A stretch of DNA of 64,000 bases from IMG/VR virus record IMGVR_UViG_3300035703_000005, positions 124,001-188,000 of that record; one strand, given 5' to 3'. This stretch comes from a virus. Below, piece by piece: positions 21,997-52,900 of this stretch. The notes below the pieces were generated by a model. The model was given only the letters and a program-made list of their open reading frames with translations. It searched no databases and was not told the DNA's origin. Every line of letters starts with the position of its first letter. Within the stretch, counting starts at the first letter, position 1. Both the position numbers and the translations under genes were made by a program.

Positions 21997-22140
21997 TTAG
22001 ATATTTATAAAAGAAGAAGCGCCCTGTGAGAGGCGCTTCTTGAGTGCTTGGCGTCTTGCCTTCGCTTGTCGCAGTGCTTGTGGTTTAAGTTTTCGTTTTT
22101 GTTCCTTCTTGGAATGGTGTTGCCAGTTTGGTGTGGTCAT
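21997..22140 (-). CDS. Small basic protein, 47 aa, ending inside a terminator
   Basis: An ATG at 22140 overlaps the TGA of gp46 (ATGA) and the frame stays open to TAA at 21997. The product (MTTPNWQHHSKKEQKRKLKP at the start) is dominated by Lys, Arg, Gln and Ala and could bind nucleic acid. Its last 14 codons run through the terminator at 22010-22040 and through the TATAAATA promoter of the next gene. This implies either a real overlap of signals and code or a shorter functional protein. No family was recognised. Confidence 0.6.
   Translation of the reverse strand: MTTPNWQHHSKKEQKRKLKPQALRQAKARRQALKKRLSQGASSFINI
22002..22009 (-). promoter_or_regulatory. Late promoter box TATAAATA
   Basis: TATAAATA on the minus strand, 20 bases upstream of the ATG at 21981 and directly behind a terminator hairpin. 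Confidence 0.7.
22010..22040 (-). terminator. Rho-independent terminator after gp46
   Basis: On the minus strand AGAAGCGCC and GGCGCTTCT pair around an eight-base loop, followed by TCTTTT. It lies within the 3' end of the 47-residue gene. Confidence 0.75.
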
Positions 22141-23855
22141 GACACGAGTTTACTGAATCCTTTTACTTTATCAAATTTCATCACCTTGTCAAATTTATCC
22201 ATGAGGTCGTCGGTCTTATGTGAGATTACGAACACATGAGCATCCTGAATGACATAACGAATAATATTTGTGAAAAAATCTGTTCCTGCACCATCCAAAG
22301 AACTATCAAAGATTTCGTCTAAGATGAGAAGATTTGTACTGGCCGAGTTCCTAAGTTTGGCAATATCCCGCCAAGTAAACAAGAGAGAAAGGTCAATACG
22401 CATCTTCTCACCTTCACTAAACGATTCATAACTAAAATCTTCGTGAACTGGTGACTTGATAACCTCCTTAAACTCTTCATCCAATGTGAAATTGATGTAG
22501 AAGTCCATCATCTGTAGATACTTGTTTATCTGCTGATTCATAAGAGGCAGATACTTTTTGATGATTTTGGACTTTACTCCACCATCTTTCATCAATGAAT
22601 GAGCGAACTCGTAATAATTAACTTGTTCCTTTTCCTTAGATCTTTCTTTTTCTAATGTTTCAAGATCCGTTATTAAGTTTTCAAGGGCTTTGCGTTCAGA
22701 ATTTCGGTTTTGAACTTGTTCGGTAATTTCTTGAATTTCGTTTCGTAGATTCCTGATTTGTCTGTTAAGCCCAGTAATTTTAACATTGTTGTGTGAAATG
22801 TCATTGTTGAGTCTGTTAATCTCCGTAGAATAAGATAAAAATTGTTGATCTTTTTCTAGTTCTACATTGATTGCATCCTCCAACTCTTGGTATCCGCCAT
22901 TGAGTTCTTTGGATTTCTCCTCAATATCTACAATCTTATCTAGGCGAAATTTTTCCTCAATACTTTGCGTACATGTAGGACAAACCGAATTCTCCTGAAA
23001 AAACTTATGTTCAGAAACTAGTGTTTGTATTTTTTGTTCAAGTTTAGCTTTGATTTGATTTAATTTTTTTAGAGTTGAATTTGTACTAGTAAGTTCTTCC
23101 AACTTTGGTTGAAGATCTCTTTCAATCATTACCAAAGTAGCTTCATTATCAGTAGTCAATTCATCAATTTCATTCTCAATAGTTTGAATATTTTCTTCTT
23201 TTCTTTTGATACGATCTTTTCCACTTTTGTCAAGATCTTTGATGAAGTTCTCTTGCATCTCAATCTTATCCTCAATCATTTCTTTTTTGATTGAATATTC
23301 ACGAATGAGTTCATTAGTGCGTCTCATTCTTTCTTTCAGGATATTATTCATAGTAGAGAAAATCTTGATATCAAGAAGATCTTCTACAATTTCTCTACGA
23401 TGAGCAGAAGTCAACTGCATAAATGGAACAAAAGTTGCAGATCCAAGAATAACTGTCTGCGTGAAAGACTTATAGTTTAATTTTAGAATACTTTCCTCAA
23501 GTTTCTTTTGTTGATCTTGAGCTGCGGAATCTTGATTTTGAACAGTTCCGTCTATCGAGATCTCAAAAATATTCGGTTTAATTCCTCTTACTACCTTATA
23601 GTCTTTATTTCCAATCGTGAATTCAATTTCCACAAGACAATCCTTCTCATTCACAGAGTTAATGAGTTGAGGTTTATTAATCTTACGGAATGGTTTGTTA
23701 TACAGTACAAAAGTAAGAGCATCCAAAATGGTACTCTTACCAGAACCATTAGTTCCGACAATTAGATTTGTTTGAGCGTCTTGAAAATTTACTTCAGTAA
23801 ATTGATTTCCAGTGGAAAGAAAATTACGCCAACGAATTGTTTTAAAAATAATCAC
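22137..23855 (-). CDS. gp46: Recombination endonuclease subunit gp46 (Rad50/SbcC-like)
   Basis: The 572-residue SMC-type ATPase starts with GTG at 23855. Walker A is GTNGSGKS (34-41), a zinc-hook CPTC sits at 292-295 between long coiled coils, the signature is FSEGEKMRIDLSL, and Walker B is LLILDEIFD. With gp47 it resects DNA ends for recombination-dependent replication and host DNA breakdown. The start matches T4 gp46 in layout, and no ATG start is available nearby. gp47 is encoded two genes upstream and not next to it, because the amidinotransferase and DUF3110 genes lie between them. Confidence 0.95.
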   Translation of the reverse strand: MIIFKTIRWRNFLSTGNQFTEVNFQDAQTNLIVGTNGSGKSTILDALTFVLYNKPFRKINKPQLINSVNEKDCLVEIEFTIGNKDYKVVRGIKPNIFEISIDGTVQNQDSAAQDQQKKLEESILKLNYKSFTQTVILGSATFVPFMQLTSAHRREIVEDLLDIKIFSTMNNILKERMRRTNELIREYSIKKEMIEDKIEMQENFIKDLDKSGKDRIKRKEENIQTIENEIDELTTDNEATLVMIERDLQPKLEELTSTNSTLKKLNQIKAKLEQKIQTLVSEHKFFQENSVCPTCTQSIEEKFRLDKIVDIEEKSKELNGGYQELEDAINVELEKDQQFLSYSTEINRLNNDISHNNVKITGLNRQIRNLRNEIQEITEQVQNRNSERKALENLITDLETLEKERSKEKEQVNYYEFAHSLMKDGGVKSKIIKKYLPLMNQQINKYLQMMDFYINFTLDEEFKEVIKSPVHEDFSYESFSEGEKMRIDLSLLFTWRDIAKLRNSASTNLLILDEIFDSSLDGAGTDFFTNIIRYVIQDAHVFVISHKTDDLMDKFDKVMKFDKVKGFSKLVS

Positions 23856-23888: not shown

Positions 23889-25169
23889 TTAATTCCTTTC
23901 CGGAAAATAGTCTTGTCTAGTTCCAGATCTACTAATATCACTAGTAATGCAATGAATTCCACCATCCCAAAAATATCTGTGACGGAAATTGAGTACATGT
24001 GGTGTTATTCCATGTCTTTCAAAAGCCTCGAAAACTTTTTCATTATAGTTATTAACTATAACATTGGTTGGATTTACTATTAACATATTAACATCAAATA
24101 TAGTCTCTTCGACATATATTACCCAATCTTTCAACCAAGTTTCAACATAGTCTGTAAAATCATCATTAAGTTCTTCACCGGGAACCCACCATTTACCTTC
24201 ATTTTTTCTTTTCAAATCAATAAATTCTTTAATTTTTAAATTTTCATCACCCTGGGATGGCAAATAGACAACTTCCCAATCTGGAAAAGTTTTAGAATAA
24301 TTTTGAACTTCGTGTAAAGAAATTATTAATCCTGGTTTGACTGGAGTATAAGCAGCATCACCATGAGTATTTGCTTTAACCAAGTGCATTCTATAATCTG
24401 GAAAATATTCTTCTTTTAATTCCGAATATATTTTTTTTAAATTTTCGTATGAAAATTTATTATCAGGAACAGTAGAAGAATAATATAAGTCTTTTCCTAA
24501 TCTAGTTACACAAGCACTATTGACAAATTTATCATAAACAATATTGTTTCCATGATCTTTAATATAATTTTCAATAGTATTAAAGGTGTTAAATTTTTTA
24601 TTATTAGGAAAAGTTTCCAATGGGTTATGATTAACCGATGCAAGTATACCTTTAAAAGAATCTAATACCTTCTGCCTCATATATTTTGGCATTTGCAATA
24701 ATTTTGCTTTAAAAATTTTAGAAAATATTTCTTTCTCTTTTACTGATAAATTTTTTATTTCTCGTATGTCTTCTATTTTTGTGAAAAAGTTAGTGTCACA
24801 AACATAAGTAAAATTCCATTGATAAACAAAAGATCTCCAAAGTACTTCCATGCCATAATTGCCACCAGGCATGAAAAATGTTTCTCCAATCATGGCAGTA
24901 TGATCCCTCGGAGTCATTGGTGGAGGAGAGTATGATCCTGCCCAATAATGATCTTCAGGATTATCCGAGATATCAGTTCTCAAAACTTTTACATTAAAGG
25001 ATTCCAAAATAGATATTAATTTTTGATAATCCTCTTCCGTTTCTATAGCTATACGTTCCATGACAGAACGAGCTTTTGGGTTTTTAATAAAACTATAAAA
25101 TTCTGGAGGATAACTGCGGCCTACTGCACAAACTTGCAAAGGATCCCAATGTTGATGAACTGATAACAT
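23889..25169 (-). CDS. Amidinotransferase-like enzyme (guanidine-modifying, pentein fold)
   Basis: The 426-residue protein opens with HWDPLQVCAVGRSYPPEF, a typical start for glycine amidinotransferase-like enzymes. The catalytic set is visible: PRDHTAMIGE, GKDLYYSS (Asp), THGDAAYTPVKPGLII (His) and the final GGIHCITSDISR with the nucleophilic Cys. The family moves an amidino group from arginine, for example to glycine to give guanidinoacetate; the acceptor here is unknown. The gene is visibly richer in A/T-ending codons than its neighbours and has a late box overlapping the upstream stop. It separates gp46 from gp47, which points to a recent insertion. No strong ribosome site precedes the ATG. 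Confidence 0.85.
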   Translation of the reverse strand: MLSVHQHWDPLQVCAVGRSYPPEFYSFIKNPKARSVMERIAIETEEDYQKLISILESFNVKVLRTDISDNPEDHYWAGSYSPPPMTPRDHTAMIGETFFMPGGNYGMEVLWRSFVYQWNFTYVCDTNFFTKIEDIREIKNLSVKEKEIFSKIFKAKLLQMPKYMRQKVLDSFKGILASVNHNPLETFPNNKKFNTFNTIENYIKDHGNNIVYDKFVNSACVTRLGKDLYYSSTVPDNKFSYENLKKIYSELKEEYFPDYRMHLVKANTHGDAAYTPVKPGLIISLHEVQNYSKTFPDWEVVYLPSQGDENLKIKEFIDLKRKNEGKWWVPGEELNDDFTDYVETWLKDWVIYVEETIFDVNMLIVNPTNVIVNNYNEKVFEAFERHGITPHVLNFRHRYFWDGGIHCITSDISRSGTRQDYFPERN

Positions 25170-25195
25170 AATAACTAATTTTAAAAAATATCGAA

Positions 25196-25453
25196 TTATT
25201 TATTTCTGGGTGGAATAACGAAATCTTCAGGAGTGATGATAGCATATTTGTAATTATACTGGTGACAAGTGTTTATTGCAAGTTCCGGATCAACTTCAAC
25301 AACTTCCATTTCTGGATAATCATCTGCTTCTAAAAGTCCAGCAAATCTTTCTGCATCATCTTCATCTTGAAAAAAATATAATGTTTTTTCGCCATAAGGA
25401 TCTGATACAGCGTATGCCCCATCTTCATCTCCGTATTGCGTAATCATGTACAT
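25196..25453 (-). CDS. DUF3110-like protein, 85 aa
   Basis: The 85-residue protein has ETLYFFQDEDDAERFAGLLEADDYPEMEVVEVDPE, here described in pieces: LYFFQDEDDAERFAGLL and the following DYPEMEVVEV match the DUF3110 pattern of cyanobacteria. It is acidic and has no cysteine cluster or membrane segment. DUF3110 has no known function. The presence of a cyanobacterial family supports a cyanobacterial host. It follows gp47 after a single base. Confidence 0.8.
   Translation of the reverse strand: MYMITQYGDEDGAYAVSDPYGEKTLYFFQDEDDAERFAGLLEADDYPEMEVVEVDPELAINTCHQYNYKYAIITPEDFVIPPRNK
25197..25204 (-). promoter_or_regulatory. Late promoter box AATAAATA for the amidinotransferase gene
   Basis: AATAAATA on the minus strand, 28 bases upstream of the ATG at 25169, sharing bases with the TAA stop of the DUF3110 gene. 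Confidence 0.55.
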
Positions 25454-25454
25454 A

Positions 25455-26501
25455 TTATTCTATTTCGCAAGCTTCTTGATAGACTTCTCGCAAAAGTTTT
25501 TTGACTTTCTCTTTATCTAAGTCAAAATCAGAGTCTTCAACATATTTATTTAAAATGGTGATGGTATCCTCAATTTTTTCTTGATCAAAGTCCACGTCAT
25601 CGTCATTAACTTCAAAGTTTTCAACGATTTTAATATCTACAACTCCAGTCTTATAGATCTTATTCACAAACTTTTCAAAAAGAAGTTGATCAGATTTTTT
25701 GCGGACAATTATTTTAACAATCTTATCTTTACAGGAAGTTGCATTGAATAACTTTGGATTTTGATCCTCATAATAAATTCTTTCAAACATATTATAGGGG
25801 TTCTGAACAAACTCTAGTTCAAAAGTTTCAGTATCAAAGAAATTAAATCCTCTCTTATCATCCACATCATTCCAATATAATTGATATGGATTTCCCAAAT
25901 AAAAGACCTTTCCATTATTAGAACGAGTATGATAGTGACCAGAACAAACAATTCTAAAATTATCAAATAGATTTGCTTCCATTCCATGTTGTTGAACATT
26001 TCCTGGATAAACACTAAATCCTTGAAGTTCAAGGTGTCCAAATGCAGCTTTTGCTTTGGTTTTAGAAAGTTTTTCTAAAGTCTCTTCATGATTTTCAGGA
26101 GAAATCCAGGGAATCATGAATGTTTTTAATCCCGCAACTTCATACTCACCAGGACTAGAAATGGGAACAATGTTATCATACTCTCTCAACAGGGACTCAA
26201 TAGAGTTGACTTCATTGGTATTTTTATAATACGCATCATGATTACCAACGATTTGATATACTTTGATTCCCAAATCGCGGAAACGATCGTAAACATTTTC
26301 TTTTGCCCAGTTTAGGGCCCAAAAATCTACACTTTTACGATTATCAAATGCATCACCCAAATGAATACAATGTTTGATATTTCTCTTTTCTAATTCTGGA
26401 AAAAAGACATCCTCATAAAACTTTTTAAAATAATCATGAAAAGTTTTACTGGATTTTCTCGCACCATAGTGAGTATCCGTAACACAAGCAATTAAAGTCA
26501 T
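25455..26501 (-). CDS. gp47: Recombination endonuclease subunit gp47 (Mre11/SbcD-like)
   Basis: The 348-residue metallophosphatase has the family motifs in order: VTDTHYG (D9, H11), HLGDAFDNRKS, IVGNHDAYYKN, and CSGHYHTRS. Together with gp46 it forms the nuclease that trims DNA ends. Its ATG overlaps the stop of gp55 (positions 26498-26501). The C-terminal 120 residues are rich in Asp, Glu and Lys and likely contact gp46. Confidence 0.95.
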   Translation of the reverse strand: MTLIACVTDTHYGARKSSKTFHDYFKKFYEDVFFPELEKRNIKHCIHLGDAFDNRKSVDFWALNWAKENVYDRFRDLGIKVYQIVGNHDAYYKNTNEVNSIESLLREYDNIVPISSPGEYEVAGLKTFMIPWISPENHEETLEKLSKTKAKAAFGHLELQGFSVYPGNVQQHGMEANLFDNFRIVCSGHYHTRSNNGKVFYLGNPYQLYWNDVDDKRGFNFFDTETFELEFVQNPYNMFERIYYEDQNPKLFNATSCKDKIVKIIVRKKSDQLLFEKFVNKIYKTGVVDIKIVENFEVNDDDVDFDQEKIEDTITILNKYVEDSDFDLDKEKVKKLLREVYQEACEIE

Positions 26502-49900: not shown

Positions 49901-52900
49901 CATAACCAACCTGAGGGAAACTTAGTCCCGCATTTGTAGTTATCCCTGTGGTTGTATTGACACCAATGTATGGAGGACGAGTAACAACCCCAGTCACCGC
50001 ACCTTGATTGAGAACACTAACTATAATGTCTCCATTTTGGAAGTTATAAACACTACTGTTATTAAGAATGATATATTGAGAATAAGTATCACTTGTAAGA
50101 ACATATGGAGATGTTGGTTCAATAACAGTATCACCATTTAGTAGACCTAAAGCGGGAATTTGGTTATGTAATTGCAATCTACCATAATTATAAGGTGTTC
50201 TGTAAAAATTAGAAACTTTAGGTGGAATTAGGTCAGCGTTGATCTGTCCAATAGCATTTAATTGAACAATAGCATTAGGAACAGCATTAGTAGATACGGA
50301 TTTATCAATAAACCCGCCAAGTCTACTATTAAGGAATGATCTTGTTGCAAGTTGAGTTGGAACTCTCCTATTCAATGGTCCACCAAGTTCATTATCACCG
50401 AGTCCAGAATCTGTAGAGAATTCTTCAATAGAAACACCACCCGAAAGTGATAGTCTAAGAGAATCGAGAGTACCAATTGTTACAGTATTGTTGAAGATAA
50501 TATTACCCGTTCTGTTGAATGCGGTAATAAAGTCTCCAATCTTGAAGTCACCAAGTTCATTGGTGCCGGATGAGAATACTCTTCCACCACGTTCAGAAAC
50601 TTGTTCAGTTCTGGCATCGGTCTTACCTCCATTTTGTGGTAGGGCATTATAATCAATACCAGATCCAGAATATTCCCAAGTATGACCAGATGAGTTAATA
50701 ATTGATGGTCTATGCCAATGTAACTTATAAGTTTCTGGAAGATTTTGAACACCTTGAATACTTTGACCTACCAAAGTAGAATCAATCTTACTATTAGTAG
50801 ACCAATATGTCGTTAATCCCGCAATAACAGTTACTGCAACACCTATTGGAGATCCGCTATGATCTGTTATATTAAGAATCGTAGTTCCATTGGAGATTGC
50901 AAAGTTTCTTCTAATGCCTTCAGAAAGTTCAACGGAAACAATCAACTCCCTTGAAGTTTGATTGTATGTGTATGCAATACCAACCGCTGTTCCACCAACA
51001 ACTGTTTGAGTAATTTCTCTACCGGAAACAAAGTTAGCTGTGCTCCCAACCCCAGCAAGAGTAAGTTTTTGATAAGAATTATGTCTGTCAAGAACTGATG
51101 ATGCAAAAAATTCAAAAGTATTTTTTTGAAATGTGTGAATACCAGTAGATACCGAAGTCAAATCAACAATTCTAGTTAATCCATCATCTTCTGCTAATCT
51201 AAACGAATTGGAATCATTATAAACAACATAATATTGGTTTCCATTAACTAATCCACCTATAATTCTGTTAGGTATAACTCCTTCATCACCAAAATAAACG
51301 ATACTATCACCATTACTGAATGGATGTGAGGTAATGTTAATAGTATCGTTTGCGATGTTTACAACTCCACCATCAGTTACTGCAGTTCCAACAAACTCTG
51401 ATGTTATTGGACTTGCTTTGAAGTTTTGAGTTACATCTTGATTCGCATTATTGAATATTCTTGCAACATAAAGATCCTGATCAGATCTTCCAAGACCAAC
51501 AACTTTTAATGTAGTTAATCCACCAGAAGTACCTGTAGCAGCAATTCTTCCCCTATCAAATCTAAAGGAATTTGGACTAAATCCGGTAGATCTGAGTGCA
51601 TATAATCCAAAGTTAGTTGCTGAGTTTGTAATAGATAGATATCCGCCGGACTGTGTTAGGGAACCATATCTACAGAAAATTTGGAAACAAGAGACAACCT
51701 GTGCATATCCATCATTAATTGTTCTCCAACCAATACCACCAAAAGAAACCATGGTGAATGCAGCTGCAACCATGGATTTACCTTGTTCAGGTTGATCACC
51801 TTCTAGTGGTATTTCAGCTTCTTGTCTAATAACAGGAATATTTGGAGTTTGTACTTTATTACCATCAACTAGAATACCATTTGCACCTAAGAAAGACAAG
51901 ATGGAACAGTTCTGAATATATGGAGATCTTGAAATAATTGGAGGATCTATTTTCGTGGCATATCCAGATCTAGATGTCAATTGATCCTGTGGGTCATCAA
52001 AAGCAACAGCATAATTCCAAGTACTTAGTGGAATACCAGCCTCGTCAACGGAATCTTTTAATGCAAATCCTGTGACATATACTCCGTTTCTGACCCTGAA
52101 CATATCCTTACCGGAGTTCAGAGGTCTAATAATGGTATTTCTCAGGTTATCACCTACAATTGCAACGTCGTCATAAAGAATAATCGGATTGTCCTCTATG
52201 TATTCTCCAGCCTCGACAAAAATGCAAATTGGTTTAGACTGTGTTTGTGGAATACTAAGTTGTGGCGCTATATTAGTGCCATATCCAACAACACTAGTAA
52301 TAATACCGACATAATTTACAAGCGCGCTTCTAACATCTGCACAATCAGTAATACCAAGATTGATTGAAGAAATTCCAGAAAGACTTCCGGTGAGTACCGC
52401 AGTAGTAAGAATTCCAACAAGAGAGTCAATCGTTGCTTGAGTATTTGCACATACCGCAGACCCTTTGTTAGTTCCGATTCCGGCATCATTTTGAATTGTT
52501 AAATCTTGGTAATTTAACTGGTTAGTTACAGCTAACTTAGAGTAATATGCAAGACTTGTAAAAGCATAACCAGATATTACCTCTTCATTAACTAATCCAT
52601 CTGTTCTAGCGACACCAGTTCCATCAAAATATTTCTTAGTTGCATAAATTATATGTTGATTTGTTCCATAGGAAATATCTTCTGCAACTGCATTAACAAT
52701 ATATCCAAGATCTCTAGCGCACTTTCTCCCACCAACAACATTAGTAGTACCAATACCTACAAAGTCTCTTACATTAAATTCTGAATTAACTAAGAAGTAA
52801 CCATAATTAGTTGTGGTTCCGATTCCAGCAGTACTGCCAGCAGAAATAACACTTGTTACAATACCAACGAGACTTGAAATTGTTGCTCTAACATTTGCAC

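What the first reader, a model, noticed from the sequence alone, without database searches (positions are those of the whole stretch)
23889..25204. Amidinotransferase gene between gp46 and gp47 with its own late promoter
The product has the Asp, His and Cys segments of glycine amidinotransferase-like enzymes (GKDLYYS, THGD, GGIHCIT). It splits the gp46-gp47 pair, is more A/T-rich in codon use than its neighbours, and has a late box on the upstream stop codon. A phage enzyme acting on arginine would be an unusual auxiliary gene: it could make guanidino compounds, redirect host arginine or citrulline nitrogen, or modify a protein. The substrate is inferred, not seen.
Basis: partly seen in the sequence, partly recalled or inferred. 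Interest (0 to 1): 0.75.

Follow-up and report, generated by a model that had tools for sequence, protein, structure and literature searches.

The report
Virus-only amidinotransferase with rewired active site
This marine cyanobacterial virus carries a real relative of arginine amidinotransferases, but from a large, unannotated virus family that has swapped the enzyme's catalytic aspartate for asparagine, gained a glutamate nearby, and often travels with the same small partner genes, which points to a viral arginine-based chemistry that has not been tested.

Summary
The gene is real: 426 aa, 23889-25169 (-), similar in sequence and fold to L-arginine:glycine amidinotransferase (AGAT; profile E 3e-18, Foldseek E 7e-16). 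It lies between DUF3110 and gp46, not directly between gp47 and gp46. The closest isolate, S-SCSM2R, has nothing there; twelve metagenomic loci have it at the same spot.

AGAT's catalytic Asp254 aligns with Asn217. In 132 viral family rows this position is never Asp or Glu, while AGAT Ser355 has become Glu in 130. Cys407, His269 and guanidinium-binding Asp89/Asp271 are kept. The virus's second, canonical amidinotransferase and cellular AGATs keep the acid and Ser. So this is a virus family (at least 585 IMG/VR hits) with an altered active site, not a captured host gene.

Many relatives pack it with a DUF6875-like (putatively heme-binding) gene, an arginyltransferase-like (ATE_C) gene and DUF6614. 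This genome has the DUF6875-like partner 62 kb away, outside the window.

Most likely: an active amidino-transferring enzyme in a small viral pathway making a guanidino compound. Substrates are unknown; deimination or a non-catalytic role remain open. The late box is real but recent; AT-richness is unremarkable.

The parts
23889..25169 (-). CDS, 426 aa, N-type viral amidinotransferase-like enzyme
24519..24521 (-). codon of Asn217, at the position of AGAT catalytic Asp254
   Evidence: alignment; never Asp/Glu in 132 family rows
24105..24107 (-). codon of Glu355, at the position of AGAT Ser355
   Evidence: ungapped alignments; Glu in 130 of 132 rows
23949..23951 (-). codon of Cys407, the nucleophile position
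24363..24365 (-). codon of His269, at AGAT His303
24357..24359 (-). codon of Asp271, at AGAT Asp305 (guanidinium-binding)
24903..24905 (-). codon of Asp89, at AGAT Asp170 (guanidinium-binding)
25197..25203 (-). T4-type late box ATAAATA overlapping the DUF3110 stop, 28 nt from the start codon
   Evidence: shared only with L001 and L002
25196..25453 (-). DUF3110 gene, upstream neighbour
   Evidence: Pfam E 1.7e-13
25455..26501 (-). gp47 (SbcD-like)
   Evidence: phrog_100 E 4.5e-114
22137..23855 (-). gp46 (SbcC-like), downstream neighbour
   Evidence: phrog_77 E 2e-183

Best explanation
The gene encodes an enzyme of the guanidino-group-modifying superfamily, nearest to AGAT/StrB1-type amidinotransferases. 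It belongs to a virus-specific family in which the acid that supports the catalytic histidine is replaced (Asn217 here) and an invariant Glu355 has appeared at the Ser355 position. It most likely still forms an amidino-Cys407 intermediate from arginine or a similar guanidino donor, held by Asp89 and Asp271 with His269 as acid/base, and passes the amidino group to an amine. The acceptor is probably made or processed by the usual partner proteins: a DUF6875-like, putatively heme-binding protein, an ATE_C-type aminoacyltransferase-like protein and a small DUF6614 or ABM-like protein. The window virus has the DUF6875-like partner at another place in its genome; I did not search it for the others. 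Shown: homology, fold, residue swap, conserved gene cassette, purifying selection. Inferred: activity, donor, acceptor, and the idea that Glu355 replaces the lost acid.
For: Homology and fold. Cys, His and both guanidinium-binding Asp kept in nearly all rows; acid absent and Glu355 present in 130/132, whereas the genome's canonical copy and cellular AGATs keep the acid and Ser. dN/dS 0.10-0.25. Same insertion site in 12 loci. C6 partner near the gene in 40 loci and at least five contexts, and present in this genome. Cassette C6/ATE_C/enzyme/DUF6614 with overlapping genes. In PPAD the residue that I place at the same motif (Thr180) is dispensable (PMC4487231).
Against: No assay exists. The defining Asp is missing, so activity cannot be assumed. 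A few family members have lost the Cys or His (L036/L038/L039, L083, L110), which shows that a non-catalytic role is possible. C6 also occurs without the enzyme in isolates, and several large records with the enzyme lack C6.
Confidence: 0.55

Rival explanations
1. It is a deiminase or other hydrolase: the amidino-Cys or related intermediate is passed to water, so arginine or a guanidino compound becomes citrulline or a ureido product, or a protein arginine is citrullinated.
For: Deiminases come next in the fold search, and PPAD works without an acid at the place equivalent by motif (PMC4487231).
Against: All best sequence matches are amidinotransferases and no deiminase appears among them.
Confidence: 0.2
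2. It is a pseudo-enzyme that binds arginine or another guanidino ligand as a sensor, or binds a partner protein, without chemistry.
For: The supporting acid is lost family-wide, and some copies have lost Cys or His while staying open reading frames.
Against: Cys is kept in 126 of 132 family rows and His in 131 of 132; the losses are confined to a few lineages, often where a second copy exists.
Confidence: 0.13
3. It amidinates a sugar or another glycan part of the virion or host envelope, as StrB1 amidinates inosamine phosphate.
For: Some relatives sit beside glycosyltransferases (L004, L005, L053, L060), and an amidinotransferase of S-SCSM2R lies in a KdsA/KdsB cluster.
Against: The window virus already has a canonical StrB1-like enzyme in its own glycan cluster; the window gene sits among recombination genes, and the deep cassette has no glycosyltransferase.
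Confidence: 0.1

Closest known systems
L-arginine:glycine amidinotransferase (AGAT/GATM, PDB 1jdw)
   Same: Fold; Cys407, His303, Asp170 and Asp305 positions; WDPL amino-terminal motif
   Different: Asp254 is Asn217 and Ser355 is Glu355 here; about 17% identity in the structural alignment; acceptor unknown
Inosamine-phosphate amidinotransferase StrB1 (1bwd) and the phage glycan-cluster type (phrog_25854; L129:8221-9183 of this genome)
   Same: Same superfamily, also in phages
   Different: Canonical DAAN motif, shorter, in glycan clusters; a separate clade in the tree
HsvA polyamine amidinotransferase (5wpi)
   Same: Best PDB fold match (E 1.4e-16)
   Different: Ser, not Glu, at the 355 position; 16% identity
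Porphyromonas gingivalis peptidylarginine deiminase (PPAD)
   Same: Superfamily member with a non-acidic residue (Thr180) where I place the supporting acid, and active without it (PMC4487231)
   Different: Deiminase of C-terminal peptide arginine; Asn297, not Glu, beside the Cys
Virus-carried K00613 glycine amidinotransferase reported from a karst lake (PMC8226683)
   Same: A viral gene annotated as an amidinotransferase

Membership tests
Guanidino-group-modifying enzyme superfamily | Alpha/beta-propeller fold | tested here: met
   AlphaFold2 pTM 0.87; Foldseek probability 1.00 to AGAT, ADI and DDAH, with modest TM-scores of 0.4-0.6
Guanidino-group-modifying enzyme superfamily | Nucleophilic Cys, HxD motif and upstream guanidinium-binding Asp | tested here: met
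   C407, H269/D271, D89 aligned to AGAT and conserved
AGAT/StrB1 amidinotransferases | Catalytic Asp (AGAT Asp254) in the DAAD/DAAN motif | tested here: not met
   Asn217; no Asp/Glu in 132 family rows
AGAT/StrB1 amidinotransferases | Ser at AGAT 355 | tested here: not met
   Glu355
AGAT/StrB1 amidinotransferases | Amidino transfer from arginine to an amine | not testable with these tools
   needs an assay
Host-derived auxiliary metabolic gene | Close homologue in the host lineage | tested here: inconclusive
   Only 3 GTDB loci, from MAG contigs, by an exact-peptide scan; PMC2242806 detected no arginine amidinotransferase in the Prochlorococcus and two Synechococcus genomes read here; cyanobacterial genomes could not be searched directly
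T4-type late promoter | TATAAATA-like box close upstream of a gene start | tested here: met
   Box at 25197-25203; boxes are strongly enriched upstream of starts in the window
DUF6875 (partner gene C6) | Match to PF21780 over its cut-off | tested here: inconclusive
   Best 23.0 bits against cut-off 24.5; 6 of 17 members match at E <= 0.05; hhalign probability 83%, E 8.8e-6; the window virus's own copy has no Pfam hit
ATE_C (partner gene c67, in relatives) | Match to PF04377 over its cut-off | tested here: met
   38.5 bits against cut-off 25 for the L106 copy; 9 of 12 members match at E <= 0.01

The most novel reading that the evidence does not exclude
A widespread virus-encoded small-molecule pathway: a heme-binding DUF6875-like oxidase, an aminoacyl-tRNA-using ATE_C enzyme, an amidinotransferase with a relocated catalytic acid and a small DUF6614/ABM-like protein together make a guanidino metabolite during infection. 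The window virus would carry a split, reduced version.
Probability: 0.3. Interest if true: 0.82.

Novelty: new variant of a known kind. Interest (0 to 1): 0.62.

Why it matters
Pfam and NCBIfam give this protein no hit and PHROGs only an unnamed one, although its family is abundant in virus contigs (at least 585 stretches). It is a natural test of whether the supporting acid in the guanidino-modifying active site can move to another part of the propeller. The conserved partner genes suggest virus-specific chemistry rather than a borrowed host step; marine picocyanobacteria examined in PMC2242806 had no detected arginine amidinotransferase.

Tried and rejected
Filing as 'glycine amidinotransferase': rejected, the defining Asp was tested and not met. 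Recent host-gene capture: no close cellular homologue outside three MAG contigs. Foreign base composition as evidence of recent arrival: rejected, GC3 is not an outlier in the window and the gene has kept its place in twelve metagenomic relatives. PMC11360552 (ocean virus AMGs) describes GATM only in passing and discusses GAMT, so it does not cover this family. Fold search of C6 in the PDB gave nothing (best E 0.11). DUF6875 genes in five bacterial genomes had no amidinotransferase in the roughly 3 kb held around them. A combined MAFFT alignment placed a gap at the 355 segment of the cellular enzymes; the ungapped phmmer alignment and direct inspection were used instead.

Full report
What is there. 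The window is G000:C1:124001-188000 of a 248,835-bp IMG/VR virus record. Its gp23 and gp46 are closest to the cyanomyovirus Synechococcus phage S-SCSM2R (83% and 81% amino-acid identity). The ORF at 23889-25169 (-) is intact. Transcription order is gp55, gp47, DUF3110, this gene, gp46. In S-SCSM2R and S-SSM7 the DUF3110 gene overlaps gp46 directly, so the gene is an insertion at that junction. Twelve metagenomic loci (L001-L003, L006, L008-L014, L025) have it at the same place, at 55-91% identity, so it has been kept there for a long time.

What it is related to. Pfam and NCBIfam give nothing, PHROGs one unnamed family. phmmer finds StrB1, HsvA, AGAT and SxtG at E 6e-10 to 1e-6, and a profile of 35 family members finds AGAT at E about 1e-18. 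The predicted structure (pLDDT 83, pTM 0.87) matches amidinotransferases first and then deiminases, with probability 1.00 and modest TM-scores. Membership of the guanidino-group-modifying superfamily is secure.

The active site is not the textbook one. The alignment to human AGAT puts catalytic Asp254 on Asn217. The three catalytic residues Asp254, His303 and Cys407 are named in PMC3684758. Of 135 homologous rows (metagenomic, partly redundant), three carry Asp at this place and all three are canonical enzymes; the other 132 have Asn (113), Ser, Gly, Thr, His, Lys or a gap. At the position of AGAT Ser355, reached by an ungapped local alignment, 130 of the 132 have Glu, and the two exceptions (L083, L110) have also lost the Cys. 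Cellular AGAT-like proteins drawn from a bacterial phylum have DAAD (one has EAAD) and YSS or LSS there. Two linked changes at active-site positions, fixed across a family while Cys, His and the two guanidinium-binding Asp stay, suggest a rewired rather than a dead site. In PPAD the residue that I place at the same motif is Thr180, and its Ala mutant keeps about 66% activity (PMC4487231), so an acid there is not always needed. That Glu355 takes over the role is inference.

Selection. dN/dS between the window gene and its relatives in L001, L002, L003 and L010 is 0.10-0.25, against 0 to 0.12 for gp46, gp47, DUF3110, gp55 and uvsW: purifying selection, but faster evolution than its neighbours.

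Distribution. Among 50,697 isolate phage records only four match; three are contigs of one single-cell data set and the fourth is a partial match in S-SCSM2R. Only three loci came from 84,980 bacterial and archaeal genomes, by a scan that needs short exact peptides, and L086 has the gene layout of its viral relatives. In 398 genomes of one bacterial phylum, apart from L086's own contig, only ordinary AGAT-like proteins matched (E about 1e-11). The tree separates the canonical copies from this family (long branches, so only the broad split should be read). Some viruses carry two or three copies, a few of which have lost the Cys or His.

Partner genes. A gene of about 150-190 aa (C6) lies next to or within two genes of the family in 40 loci, in at least five genomic contexts and in both orders, often overlapping by a few bases. 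Deeper members form a tight cassette of C6, an ATE_C-like gene, the amidinotransferase and DUF6614 (L057, L076-L078, L099, L103, L104, L109, L111; re-ordered in L105, L106, L124). ATE_C is supported by Pfam and weakly by arginyltransferase structures. C6 is distantly related to DUF6875 and shares its Cys-Pro motif; PMC13307353 states that DUF6875 proteins are heme-binding and oxidise tryptophan. That C6 binds heme is inference. The window virus has C6 at G000 211265-211690, beside gp25 and gp6, where L027, L028, L045 and L048 carry C6 and the amidinotransferase together. So the pair is split in the window virus. Syn1, S-PM2 and other isolates carry C6 apparently without the amidinotransferase, and 8 of 18 further records with the enzyme lack C6 in the part held, so the link is not obligate.

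A built-in control. The same genome has a second amidinotransferase at G000 51220-52182 (L129:8221-9183) with the canonical SFDAAN motif, inside a cluster of radical-SAM-like, epimerase-like, sugar-dehydrogenase-like and glycosyltransferase-like genes next to tail-fibre-like genes (neighbours named by inspection). The window gene is therefore less likely to be the virus's glycan amidinotransferase.

Promoter. ATAAATA occurs 20 times on the minus strand, 15 of them 8-70 nt upstream of a gene start, zones that cover 4.7% of the window. The total count is not above chance; the placement is. The box before this gene is shared only with L001 and L002. In the other relatives at this site the upstream stop codon abuts the start, so they are probably read with gp47 and DUF3110.

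Verdict. Superfamily membership is near certain. Enzymatic activity is likely, amidino transfer more likely than deimination, the acceptor unknown. I do not file it as a glycine amidinotransferase, because the defining Asp was tested and not met.

Noticed in passing
L129:8221-9183 (G000 51220-52182, outside the window): A second, canonical StrB1-like amidinotransferase of the same virus, inside a glycan-type gene cluster next to tail-fibre-like genes.
   Followed up: yes
L092:8245-8712 (G000, outside the window): C6, a DUF6875-like gene with a Cys-Pro motif (phrog_10325, unknown function), upstream of gp25/gp6; found in 25 cyanophage records, its confident model has no PDB fold match.
   Followed up: yes
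L036, L038, L039 (one lineage); L083; L110 second copy: Family members that have lost the nucleophilic Cys (and in L110 the His) but are still open reading frames.
   Followed up: partly
L019, L020, L022, L034, L035, L037: Two divergently oriented paralogues of the family side by side, close to psbA in some loci.
   Followed up: no
L004, L005, L030, L031, L040, L052, L054, L069, L097, L119, L122: A small (about 88 aa) protein with only weak Pfam monooxygenase/Dabb hits directly or closely downstream of the enzyme; it may stand in for DUF6614.
   Followed up: no
window, minus strand, 20 ATAAATA sites: T4-type late boxes precede many window genes at 14-63 nt from the start codon, though their total number is not above chance.
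   Followed up: partly
L024, L015-L021, L041, L060 and others: Carbamoyltransferase (NodU/TobZ-type) genes recur near the enzyme in the psbA-linked contexts.
   Followed up: no
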